Positions 5,986-10,472 of a DNA stretch of 64,000 nt are shown piece by piece (within the stretch, counting starts at the first letter, position 1; each line of letters begins with the position of its first letter). The notes beneath the pieces are model-generated. The model saw only the letters and a program-made list of their open reading frames with translations, did no database searches and was not told the origin of the DNA. The translations under genes and the position numbers were made by a program. Origin of the DNA: Pseudomonas koreensis (GTDB lineage: Bacteria; Pseudomonadota; Gammaproteobacteria; Pseudomonadales; Pseudomonadaceae); contig NZ_JALJWP010000001.1 of the NCBI RefSeq assembly GCF_024169245.1, positions 62,001 through 126,000 of the forward strand. Direction: 5' to 3'.

Positions 5986-8032
5986 CACACAATCCCCCAG
6001 AGCATGGCCGGCCCAAAGGCCGCCAAGGCCCCCTGAACACAAGCAGAAACACACCCGCCCCATTGAAACCACCCCACCCCTGCCCCATCTAACACCCCAT
6101 ACCCCATTGCGCAGGTGCCCCATGACCGACCAGCAAGATCGCCCGGACAACCACGACGACTACGAAACCGACCATATCGAACACACCTCCTCCGGCACCG
6201 GCCTGGCGCTGCCCGGGCAAAACCTGCCGGACAAGGTCTACATCATCCCGATCCACAATCGTCCGTTCTTCCCGGCCCAGGTCCTGCCGGTCATCGTCAA
6301 CGAAGAACCGTGGGCCGAAACCCTTGAGCTGGTCAGCAAATCCGAACACCACTCCCTGGCCCTGTTCTTCATGGACACGCCCCAGGAAGACCCGCGCCAC
6401 TTCGACACCGGCGCCCTCCCCGAATACGGCACGCTGGTCAAGGTCCACCATGCCAGCCGCGAGAACGGCAAACTGCAGTTTGTGGCCCAGGGCCTGAGCC
6501 GCGTGCGCATCAAGACCTGGCTCAAGCACCACCGCCCGCCGTATCTGGTCGAAGTCGAGTACCCGCACCAGCCCACCGAGCCGACCGACGAGGTCAAGGC
6601 TTACGGCATGGCGCTGATCAATGCGATCAAGGAATTGCTGCCGCTCAACCCGCTATACAGCGAAGAGCTGAAGAACTACCTCAACCGCTTCAGCCCCAAC
6701 GACCCGTCGCCGCTGACCGACTTTGCCGCCGCCCTGACGTCCGCCACCGGCCCCGAGCTGCAGGAAGTGCTCGATTGCGTGCCGATGCTCAAGCGCATGG
6801 AAAAAGTCCTGCCGATGCTGCGCAAGGAAGTCGAAGTCGCGCGCCTGCAAAAAGAGATCTCCGCCGAAGTCAACCGCAAGATCGGCGAGCATCAGCGCGA
6901 GTTCTTCCTCAAGGAACAACTCAAGGTCATCCAGCAGGAACTCGGCCTGACCAAGGACGACCGCAGCGCCGACCTCGAACAGTTCCAGCAGCGCCTCGAA
7001 GGCAAAACCCTGCCGGCGCAGGTGCAGAAGCGCCTCGAAGAAGAAACCCACAAACTGTCGATCCTCGAAACCGGCTCGCCGGAATACGCGGTCACGCGCA
7101 ATTATCTGGACTGGGCCACGTCGGTGCCGTGGGGCGTGTATGGCGAGGACAAACTCGACCTCAAGCACGCACGCAAAATCCTCGACAAGCACCACGCGGG
7201 TCTGGACGACATCAAGGATCGCATCCTCGAATTCCTCGCAGTGGGTGCCTACAAAGGCGAAATCAGCGGCTCGATCGTGCTGCTGGTCGGCCCGCCGGGC
7301 GTGGGTAAAACCAGTGTCGGCAAATCCATCGCCGAATCCCTCGGCCGGCCGTTCTACCGTTTCAGCGTCGGCGGCATGCGCGATGAGGCCGAGATCAAGG
7401 GGCATCGCCGCACCTACATCGGCGCGCAGCCGGGCAAACTGGTGCAGGCGTTGAAAGACGTTGAAGTGATGAACCCGGTGATCATGCTCGACGAGATCGA
7501 CAAGATGGGCCAGAGCTATCAGGGCGACCCGGCCTCGGCGCTGCTGGAAACCCTCGATCCCGAGCAGAACGTCGAATTCCTCGACCACTACCTCGACCTG
7601 CGAATGGATCTGTCGAAGGTCCTCTTCGTGTGCACCGCCAACACCCTCGACTCGATCCCCGGCCCGCTGCTAGACCGCATGGAAGTGATTCGTCTGTCGG
7701 GCTACATCACCGAAGAGAAAGTCGCCATCGCCAAGCGTCACCTGTGGCCGAAGCTGTTGGAAAAGGCCGGCGTGTCGAAAGGCAGCCTGAGCATCAGCGA
7801 CACCGCGCTCAAAGCCTTGATCGACGGTTACGCCCGAGAAGCCGGCGTGCGCCAGCTGGAAAAACAGATGGGCAAACTGGTACGCAAAGCGGTGATGAAG
7901 CTGATCGACGATCCGAAAGCGGTGATCAAACTCGGCCCGAAGGACCTCGAAGCGTCACTGGGGCATCCGGTGTTCCGCAACGAACAAGTGCTGTCCGGGA
8001 CCGGTGTCATCACCGGGCTGGCATAGACCAGC

Positions 8033-8536
8033 ATGGGCGGTGCGACCTTGCCGATCGAAGCGACGCGGATTCACACGCTTAACCGGGGCTTCAAACTCAC
8101 CGGGCAACTCGGCGATGTGATGAAGGAATCGGCAGAGATCGCCTACAGCTACGTCAGCTCGCACCTCAAGCAGTTTGGCGGTGATGCGAAGTTCTTCGAC
8201 GAAGCGTTCGTCCACTTGCACGTGCCGGAAGGCGCGACGCCGAAGGACGGCCCGAGCGCCGGCGTAACCATGGCCAGCGCCCTGCTCTCGCTCGCGCGTA
8301 ATCAACCACCGAAAAAAGGCGTGGCGATGACTGGTGAATTGACCCTGACCGGGCATGTGCTGCCGATTGGCGGTGTGCGCGAGAAGGTGATTGCGGCGCG
8401 GCGACAGAAGATTTTCGAGTTGATTCTGCCCGAGCCGAATCGGGGTAATTTTGAAGAACTGCCGGATTATCTGAAGGACGGGATTACTGTGCACTTTGCC
8501 AAGCGGTTTGCGGATGTGGCGAAGGTGTTGTTTTAA
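8033..8536 (+). CDS. Detached Lon S16 protease domain (possible re-initiation product)
   Basis: The frame after the amber codon opens at an ATG seven bases further on and encodes 167 residues (MGGATLPIEATRIHTLNRGF onward), a whole S16 domain with Ser75 and Lys118 in local numbering. No Shine-Dalgarno is visible before this ATG, so translation would need re-initiation or readthrough of the TAG. It is listed separately because a free protease domain without its ATPase would behave differently from Lon; most likely it is simply the broken 3' half. Confidence 0.35.
   Translation: MGGATLPIEATRIHTLNRGFKLTGQLGDVMKESAEIAYSYVSSHLKQFGGDAKFFDEAFVHLHVPEGATPKDGPSAGVTMASALLSLARNQPPKKGVAMTGELTLTGHVLPIGGVREKVIAARRQKIFELILPEPNRGNFEELPDYLKDGITVHFAKRFADVAKVLF
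8485..8536 (+). repeat. Direct repeat, left copy (lon 3' end)
   Basis: The last 52 bases of lon, coding TVHFAKRFADVAKVLF and stop. A copy of equal length with 45 of 52 identical bases lies at 9747-9798, and resemblance continues weakly for about 25 bases upstream. Together the two copies bracket the accessory gene at 8704-9708. Confidence 0.8.
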
Positions 8537-8619
8537 CGGGAGTTTGCGCCATGCGGGCTTCTCGCGGTGATTTATGAGTTTTTGTTGTTAAAACTGGATC
8601 AAACCGAGCTTAGAAATCT

Positions 8620-8703: not shown

Positions 8704-9708
8704 ATGAGCAAGCAAAATGCACTTCATATCGGCTTCATGCACAATCTTTGCGGGAAATTCGAAGCTTCATTCACCAGCCCCGGCGCTCCCGGCGAAGCAC
8801 GCTATCCATATCACTCCCAGACATTGCATAACCGGCTGGCCCGGACTCCTGAGTATCTGAACTTTGATAGCACCTCAGGCACATCCCCATTAGCAACGGC
8901 AACCAGCGACCGTCGAAGCATAGGCATTACGCTTAGATCAGAGATTGTATCTGGCACCTACGTATTTCCGCGGGATGCTTCTGTGGTGCAGGTAACCTAC
9001 GGCGAATTTCAAAACTCCGACACCAATTTCAATTTTATGACTCACCCTGCAACCCACGCAGAACTTGAGCTGAACATTACCGAAGAGGGACGGCGTTACT
9101 CGGGTGAACTCCGATTCGAAGTGCTGATCAACGGAGAAGTCCTGGAAATCGCGTCGCGCTTTGATGTTGTAATAACTTTCAACGGCGGTCCGGCAGTCTC
9201 AAGCAGCATCCAATCGAAACAAAGTCCAGCAAGCGCAAGGCTGCAAAACCTGAGTGGAGAATTCAACGCCAGGTTTCCTGTTTCTGCGGAACCAGGCGAA
9301 ACGTCATTTGCACGAGCTCCATATCACTCTTCGGGCCTGAACTACATTGATGCATTCTTTCAGGAAGACATTAACTTCAATACCCAAAGCGGAAGGGTTT
9401 ACTTAGACTCTTATATAACCAGCGATGCGCGGTCGTTTTCAGTTCACTTGAAGAAAGGAATTACTTCTGGCACCTATAGCTATCCAAGCGTGGGCAGTCC
9501 ATTTACGCTGGTGAAATATAACGAAATGCGCTACATGGGCGATGGATATCTGGATTGGAGCCTGGATATTCTTGAAGCAACACTTGAACTTGAAGTTACG
9601 GATGAACGTCGCTACGTCGCGAAGGCCTTGTCGATAAAAGCCAAAACACCCACCGGCTCGGTCTTGAACATCAATGCCGATTTCGACATTTATCTGGCGA
9701 TGGATTGA
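8704..9708 (+). CDS. Uncharacterised protein of two tandem repeats (334 aa)
   Basis: A 334-residue soluble protein without signal peptide or membrane segments. It consists of two related halves, about residues 14-158 and 182-331. Shared landmarks in the same order are LxGxFxAxF (15, 183), PYHS (35, 206), SGTYxxP (83, 255), LELxITE/LELEVTD followed by RRY (121, 294), and GxVLxIxxxFD (144, 318). Alternating hydrophobic residues point to beta-sandwich-like units. I know no family name. Codon use differs from the neighbours (AGA, ATA and TTA codons, lower GC), and the gene lies between two copies of the lon 3' end, so it was probably acquired. GTGAG lies just before the ATG as a weak ribosome site. 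Confidence 0.75.
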   Translation: MSKQNALHIGFMHNLCGKFEASFTSPGAPGEARYPYHSQTLHNRLARTPEYLNFDSTSGTSPLATATSDRRSIGITLRSEIVSGTYVFPRDASVVQVTYGEFQNSDTNFNFMTHPATHAELELNITEEGRRYSGELRFEVLINGEVLEIASRFDVVITFNGGPAVSSSIQSKQSPASARLQNLSGEFNARFPVSAEPGETSFARAPYHSSGLNYIDAFFQEDINFNTQSGRVYLDSYITSDARSFSVHLKKGITSGTYSYPSVGSPFTLVKYNEMRYMGDGYLDWSLDILEATLELEVTDERRYVAKALSIKAKTPTGSVLNINADFDIYLAMD

Positions 9709-9746: not shown

Positions 9747-9798
9747 TACTGTGCACTTTGTCATGCGGTTTGGAGCTGTGGCGAAGGTGCTCTTTTAA
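9747..9798 (+). repeat. Direct repeat, right copy (decayed lon 3' end)
   Basis: This copy still reads TVHFVMRFGAVAKVLF and stop in one frame, matching the true lon C-terminus in 12 of 16 residues. It has no gene upstream of it other than the accessory gene and is clearly a relic. The preceding bases read DCLDNRAGN against DYLKDGI in lon. Confidence 0.8.
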
Positions 9799-9804
9799 CC
9801 GATA

Positions 9805-9982
9805 GCCCCTCACCCCAGCCCTCTCCCCGAGGAGAGGGAGCCGACCGAGGCGTCCGGAGTCATCCATCGACCTGAAAAACCGGGTCGACTATGGATTCGG
9901 TGAGGCGCGTTCATGTCGGCGGATTTCGCCAATCGCACCCGGTCGGTCCCCTCTCCCTCTGGGAGAGGGCTAGGGTGAGGGC
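9805..9982. repeat. Inverted repeat CCCCTCACCCCAGCCCTCTC / GAGAGGGCTAGGGTGAGGG
   Basis: The outer arms at 9807-9827 and 9961-9982 are complementary, and each contains a smaller hairpin (CTCTCCCCGAGGAGAG; CCCTCTCCCTCTGGGAGAGGG). About 130 bases lie between. This is a second class of intergenic repeat, distinct from the REPs. It fills most of the gap of about 370 bp between the lon relic and the chagasin-like gene; I see no gene there. Confidence 0.65.
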
Positions 9983-10079
9983 TTGGCGTCAGTGGGTCAA
10001 CGCGGCACCCGCCTGTCACACTTTGTCTCATCTTCAGTTATGCTCGCCGTTCGTCGTAAACGCCGGAGCTGCTGATCCC

Positions 10080-10472
10080 ATGTCCACCACTCGCCTGTTT
10101 CTCCCCCTCGCCCTTTCGTTGCTGGCCGCCTGCGCCACGCAGCCAAAACACAACGTGACCGTGGAAAAACAAAGCGAATGCCCGGTGAAACTCACCAATG
10201 GGCAGAACCTGATCGTGATGCTGCCAAGCAACCCGACCACGGGTTATCGCTGGGCCATTCAGGATTCCGCTGGCGGCGTGCTGCGCGCGCTCAGCCCAGA
10301 GGTCTACAGCAATCCGGAAGATGCAGGTGTCGTCGGTGCGGCGGGCATTTCGACCTGGCGCTTCCAGGCCTTCGCGGCCGGCACCGGGCGTTTGCGCCTG
10401 ACCTCGCAACAACCTTGGGCACCAGAAGTGCTGCCCGTGGAAACCTTTGACTGCGCCATTTCCGTGAACTGA
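10080..10472 (+). CDS. Chagasin-type (I42) protease inhibitor lipoprotein
   Basis: A 130-residue lipoprotein. The signal peptide ends in the lipobox LAAC with Cys18. The mature part carries the three loops of the chagasin family that block papain-like cysteine peptidases: NPTTGYRW (51-58), a GVVGAAG segment with the following TWRFQA (83-96), and QPWAPE (111-116). Family members inhibit C1 cysteine proteases; the target in this bacterium is unknown. I start at the ATG at 10080 because it gives the lipoprotein signal; the frame is open upstream into the repeat. GGAG lies 12 bases before the ATG. Confidence 0.85.

What the first reader, a model, noticed from the sequence alone, without database searches (positions are those of the whole stretch)
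8024..8026. In-frame amber codon splits a Lon-type protease between ATPase and protease domains
Codon 635 is TAG where Lon proteins have a Trp in the GLAWT motif (established for the family, including E. coli Lon). TGG to TAG is one base. The frame is open for 634 codons before and 169 after, and the protease half keeps its Ser712/Lys755 dyad, so the gene was functional until recently. Loss of this Lon (which looks AsrA-like) could change the heat-shock response and aminoglycoside tolerance. A truncated ATPase without protease might still unfold or sequester substrates. Sequencing error and amber suppression are also possible.
Basis: partly seen in the sequence, partly recalled or inferred. 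Interest (0 to 1): 0.8.

Follow-up and report, generated by a model that had tools for sequence, protein, structure and literature searches.

The report
Recent stop codon breaks second Lon
A Pseudomonas genome carries a fresh stop codon in its spare, heat-shock-type Lon protease gene while its main Lon gene is intact; this looks like an ordinary recent gene loss or a single-base sequencing error, not a new mechanism.

Summary
Window 6122-8536 is a second LonA gene with TAG at codon 635 (8024-8026), 634 open codons before and 169 after, dyad Ser712/Lys755 encoded after the stop. The 114 relative loci compared all have a tryptophan codon there. One correction: the stop lies about 29 codons inside the protease-domain match, not between domains. 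The gene is AsrA-like: a conserved sigma-32-type promoter motif (15 of 15 regions) and an I42-inhibitor gene downstream, as for PA0779/PA0778. The housekeeping lon is intact. No CUA anticodon was seen at the 63 tRNA matches and RF1 is intact, so efficient suppression is unlikely. Besides the stop, 47 of 48 substitutions private to this genome are synonymous; constraint ended in at most about the last 3% of the terminal branch. Most likely a recent null allele of a dispensable accessory protease. A sequencing error cannot be excluded without reads. Interest is low. In passing: the lon2-icp gap is a hotspot for unknown, mostly low-GC cargo genes.

The parts
6063..6091 (+). sigma-32-type promoter motif: TTGAAA, 14-base spacer, CCCCATCTA
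   Evidence: TTGAA-N{12,18}-CCCCAT found in 15 of 15 upstream regions compared, G000 and 14 relatives; the consensus is recalled
6122..8023 (+). lon2 (AsrA-like) 5' piece: N domain, AAA+ module, lid and the first ~29 codons of the protease domain; 634 codons
8024..8026 (+). in-frame amber codon 635; a tryptophan codon in the 114 relative loci compared
8027..8533 (+). lon2 3' piece: rest of the protease domain with Ser712/Lys755, 169 codons, probably untranslated (inferred)
8033..8035 (+). family-conserved internal ATG (codon 638), 6 bases after the stop; nearest candidate for re-initiation
   Evidence: ATG in 113 of 113 relatives; predicted Shine-Dalgarno pairing within the range of the other internal ATGs
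9891..10472 (+). icp-like gene, Chagasin-family inhibitor I42 (longest ORF; the coding-like alignment starts at 10023). Next conserved gene after lon2, here separated from it by an extra 334-aa ORF

Best explanation
The gene is the second LonA protease of a Pseudomonas whose nearest named matches are fluorescens-group records. It is AsrA-like and sits behind a heat-shock-type promoter. A single-base nonsense change at codon 635 ended translation very recently in this lineage. Shown: the stop, its absence from the relatives compared, strong constraint until recently, the intact main lon, no CUA anticodon found. Inferred: heat shock still makes the message, ribosomes stop at codon 635, RF1 releases a 634-aa ATPase fragment without catalytic residues, and the cell has no Lon2 proteolysis. 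Lon1, ClpXP and others presumably cover most needs, which fits the gene's absence from some other Pseudomonas genomes.
For: TGG in 114 of 114 relative loci; TAG is one of two codons of 667 seen in none of 113 relatives. G000 against G033: 107 synonymous and 0 nonsynonymous differences in codons 1-634, 38 and 2 after the stop. Private to G000 against four agreeing relatives: 47 synonymous, 1 nonsynonymous (E786D), plus the stop. About 150 nonsynonymous changes were expected had the whole terminal branch been unconstrained, so constraint ended within the last ~3% of it (95% bound). Lon1 is intact with tig, clpP, clpX (over cut-off) and hupB- and ppiD-like neighbours (best matches, below cut-off). 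No CTA anticodon in the ARAGORN calls at the 63 tRNA matches; RF1 over cut-off with an open frame. In 14 of 398 genomes the best match falls to about the score of lon1; 10 of these 14 were rechecked and all 10 have only matches of 40% identity or less, so lon2 is dispensable in the genus.
Against: No reads and no second strain of the species, so a base-calling error cannot be separated from a real allele. No expression or protein data. One private nonsynonymous change is too few to show relaxed selection directly.
Confidence: 0.75

Rival explanations
1. The stop is a single-base sequencing or polishing error and the strain's Lon2 is intact.
For: The relatives compared have the sense codon; constraint is unbroken almost to the present, as expected if the gene still works. 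lon2 is split between frames, without stops, in G034, G101, G129 and G380, and lon1 is split too in G129, so assembly errors in lon genes probably occur.
Against: The genome is one contig, 100% complete, 0.14% contaminated. Among 46 coding-like genes shared with G033, lon2 is the only one longer than 106 aa with an in-frame stop; the other two stops are in ORFs of 82 and 106 aa, and the three genes flagged for indels have open frames in the window. The change is a substitution, not an indel.
Confidence: 0.15
2. The stop is read through at a useful rate (suppressor or leaky context), so some full-length Lon2 is made.
For: Strong constraint after the stop (10 synonymous, 1 nonsynonymous private change). 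The base after the stop is A, a context recalled as somewhat leaky in E. coli.
Against: No CUA anticodon at the 63 tRNA matches found, RF1 intact. The constraint is equally explained by a very young stop.
Confidence: 0.06
3. Two-chain Lon: the ribosome restarts at ATG 8033 and the fragments assemble.
For: The ATG lies 6 bases after the stop; predicted anti-Shine-Dalgarno pairing is -4.3 kcal/mol against -3.9 for the true start. Short protease-only Lon entries exist in the protein database, a few on long contigs (e.g. P0182, 139 aa, on a 5.86-Mb contig, not followed up).
Against: The ATG is an ordinary family residue (113 of 113 relatives), and 3 of 16 other internal ATGs pair better. The piece after the stop starts at position 36 of 205 of Lon_C, so the restart product lacks the first part of the domain. 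The 114 relative loci compared do not have this stop, so nothing shows that the split is maintained.
Confidence: 0.04

Closest known systems
AsrA / PA0779 of Pseudomonas aeruginosa
   Same: Second LonA paralogue beside the housekeeping lon; sigma-32-type motif here and RpoH induction there (PMC9866376, passages); I42/icp gene downstream; N piece 38-40% identical to the unsplit lon1 copies, as PA0779 is reported to be 40% identical to Lon (PMC1949823, passage)
   Different: This copy has an amber codon at 635, and an extra ORF lies between it and icp. The PA0779 sequence itself was not fetched, so orthology is inferred
LonA of the E. coli type (PDB chains 6u5z_A, 1rr9_A; organism recalled)
   Same: Same domain types and Ser-Lys dyad; the first residue after the stop aligns with residue 604 of the 784-aa chain 6u5z_A, so the stop stands at 603
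   Different: Interrupted before the catalytic residues
Ordinary strain-level nonsense pseudogenes of bacteria (recalled category)
   Same: Single-base stop, otherwise intact frame, no further decay seen
   Different: Nothing seen

Membership tests
LonA (endopeptidase La) | N domain, AAA+ module and S16 protease domain in one chain | tested here: not met
   All three are encoded in one frame but interrupted by TAG at 635: a LonA gene, not a complete LonA protein as read
LonA (endopeptidase La) | Ser-Lys catalytic dyad | tested here: met
   Ser712 in PKDGPSAG and Lys755 in GVREK, both encoded after the stop
AsrA (PA0779) orthologue | Second lon beside an intact housekeeping lon | tested here: met
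   Lon1, 798 aa, over the NF008053 cut-off, beside clpX, clpP and tig
AsrA (PA0779) orthologue | icp (I42) gene beside it | tested here: met
   Inhibitor_I42 at 9891-10472, with a 334-aa ORF in between here; icp-like DNA behind lon2 in 82 of 85 loci. PA0778 icp and PA0779 asrA both RpoH-induced in PMC9866376 (passage)
AsrA (PA0779) orthologue | Heat-shock (RpoH) control | tested here: inconclusive
   Promoter motif conserved in 15 of 15 regions; a sequence match only, no expression data
AsrA (PA0779) orthologue | Reciprocal best match with PA0779 | not tested
   PA0779 sequence not fetched; Kindrachuk 2011 not held
Amber-recoded or suppressed gene | tRNA with CUA anticodon | tested here: not met
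   None in the ARAGORN calls at the 63 Rfam tRNA matches; a tRNA missed by RF00005 would not be seen
Split two-chain Lon | Split shared by relatives | tested here: not met
   Sense codon in 114 of 114 relative loci

The most novel reading that the evidence does not exclude
A stop six bases before an in-frame ATG turns a hexameric AAA+ protease into a two-polypeptide machine by termination-reinitiation, giving a heat-induced unfoldase whose protease half is made as a separate chain.
Probability: 0.03. Interest if true: 0.6.

Novelty: new member of a known kind. Interest (0 to 1): 0.15.

Why it matters
If real, the strain is a natural null for an accessory heat-shock Lon, and a caution for annotators who might name two Lon proteins here. 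It does not open a new mechanism. The neighbouring cargo hotspot of unknown proteins is probably the more interesting lead.

Tried and rejected
Suppressor tRNA: rejected, no CUA anticodon found. Missing RF1: rejected.

Recurrent natural inactivation of lon2 in the genus: G034, G101, G129 and G380 carry frame splits, but G129's lon1 is split too and G101 is 86% complete, so these look like indel errors and were not used as support. G261 (77% complete, 400 contigs) has lon2 in two contig-end pieces.

A split shared by close relatives: rejected for the loci compared. A 634-639-aa version in the protein database: none at 100% identity among the best 120 listed of 8000 scored. The list holds three shortened entries (P0047, P0048, P0072); I looked at P0047 and P0072. 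Both have the tryptophan; P0047 bears the name 'partial' and P0072 changes frame after it. P0048 was not looked at. The database is clustered at 90% identity, so a truncated member could be hidden.

Protease-only homologues: one search lists 120 of 7987; many are on contigs of a few kilobases, but some are on long contigs (P0182, P0208, P0216, P0238, P0191, P0224, P0155), so other interrupted lon genes may exist. Not followed up.

Unfiltered frame comparison with G033 flagged 9 of 45 G033 ORFs and 14 of 44 window ORFs. Many of these overlap a coding-like gene on the other strand, so one search repeated it with a third-position filter (at least 0.55 of differences at position 3, at least half covered). 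That filter can drop real genes.

Literature: seven search listings (titles and starts of abstracts, several cut to the top 10-20) showed no report of a nonsense lon2 in this group; absence from print is claimed only for what those listings show. Not done: structure prediction, reads, same-species comparison (one genome per species held).

Full report
What is there. The frame from ATG 6122 to TAA 8536 has 804 codons before its end, one of them TAG at codon 635. The first piece matches the Lon substrate-binding domain, AAA and Lon lid; the second matches Lon_C; both match TIGR00763. A search of the genome with Lon_C places the domain's start at window 7937, with one TAG inside the match. The stop is therefore within the protease domain; the match of the downstream piece starts at profile position 36 of 205. 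In the PDB comparison the first residue after the stop aligns with residue 604 of the 784-aa chain 6u5z_A; that this chain is E. coli Lon and the lost residue its Trp603 is recalled. The intact lon1 of this genome has the same GLAWT motif. Ser712 and Lys755 lie after the stop.

Comparison with relatives. Codon 635 is TGG in 114 of 114 loci (two are the same genome, others may overlap). In the genus search all 398 genomes gave a match; among the roughly 150 best rows that the tool listed, every frame except those of G000 and G034 was open over at least 809 residues. G034 has a one-base gap at codon 731 in a genome rated 95% complete. The nearest relative, G033, is 93.9% identical in DNA, with no amino-acid difference in codons 1-634 and one, at 786, after the stop. 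Of the substitutions private to G000, 47 are synonymous, one is not, and one is the stop. A Poisson bound puts loss of constraint in the last ~3% of the terminal branch (it assumes a uniform neutral rate and uses only sites where four relatives agree).

Is it AsrA-like? A TTGAA-N-CCCCAT motif is present in 15 of 15 upstream regions. An I42-inhibitor gene lies downstream, and DNA like it follows lon2 in 82 of 85 loci; L057, L074 and L075 gave no match. [quoted passage not shown] PMC1949823 (passage) gives PA0779 40% identity to Lon. Kindrachuk 2011 was not held and was not seen. The PA0779 sequence was not compared.

How it probably works. The main lon is intact beside clpX, clpP and tig, all over cut-off, with hupB- and ppiD-like genes on the other side as best matches below cut-off. 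RF1 is intact, and none of the tRNAs called at the 63 matches has a CUA anticodon. The expected product is a 634-aa ATPase fragment without catalytic residues. ATP-dependent, protease-independent chaperone-like action is reported for human mitochondrial Lon (PMC8368198, abstract and passages), but for a protein with its protease domain; whether this fragment is stable or active is unknown. Restart at ATG 8033 is possible in principle, but its predicted Shine-Dalgarno pairing (-4.3 kcal/mol) lies within the range of the other 16 internal ATGs, three of which pair better.

Error or real. The assembly is one contig, rated 100% complete and 0.14% contaminated. In 46 coding-like genes shared with G033, three have an in-frame stop in the window: lon2, a 106-aa ORF antisense to the PQQ dehydrogenase gene, and an 82-aa ORF. 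Three genes flagged for indels have open frames in the window. That set reaches window 58,274 and leaves out some real genes, the PQQ dehydrogenase among them. An earlier, unfiltered comparison flagged 9 of 45 and 14 of 44 ORFs, many of them overlapping a coding-like gene on the other strand. Reads are needed to decide.

Dispensability. In 14 of 398 genomes the best match has an E-value near 1e-120, and in one more (G387, 77% complete) it is 6e-6. Ten of the 14 were rechecked: their best matches are 38-40% identical, i.e. lon1. Three of the ten have 330 or more contigs, so seven are the firmer cases; the other four of the 14 (G096, G305, G339, G351) were not rechecked.

Verdict. A correct observation of a recent nonsense allele, or possibly a base error, in an accessory Lon gene; ordinary in kind.

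Noticed in passing
window 8485-8537 and 9747-9799: A ~1.2-kb stretch between lon2 and icp is flanked by a 53-base imperfect repeat (86.8%) of the lon2 3' end with its stop codon. Of 16 other loci with a long lon2-icp gap, one (L041) has such a second copy and 15 do not.
   Followed up: partly
window 8704-9708: ORF of 334 aa, GC 0.49 against 0.598 for the window, no Pfam or PHROGs match, no DNA match in 85 related loci. It has 12 homologues (52-81% identity) besides itself among 5.77 billion proteins; the names given are hypothetical or uncharacterized, apart from one FlaF-like label.
   Followed up: partly
lon2-icp gap in L041, L044, L049, L060, L063, L064, L065, L072, L076, L085, L092, L096, L099, L114, L185, L186: 16 of 82 loci have more than 500 bases between lon2 and icp, and 13 of these hold an ORF of 128-328 aa. 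Of 10 cargo proteins scanned, the window's included, 8 have no Pfam match and 2 only matches below cut-off. Several are distantly related (L044's 328-aa ORF to the window's, 31%). It looks like a hotspot for a fast-diverging protein family.
   Followed up: partly
   Followed up: partly
G000:C1:1065202, 394902, 417302 (L003-L005): Three further, weak Lon_C matches (31-32 bits) in open frames of 540, 815 and 479 aa; not identified.
   Followed up: no
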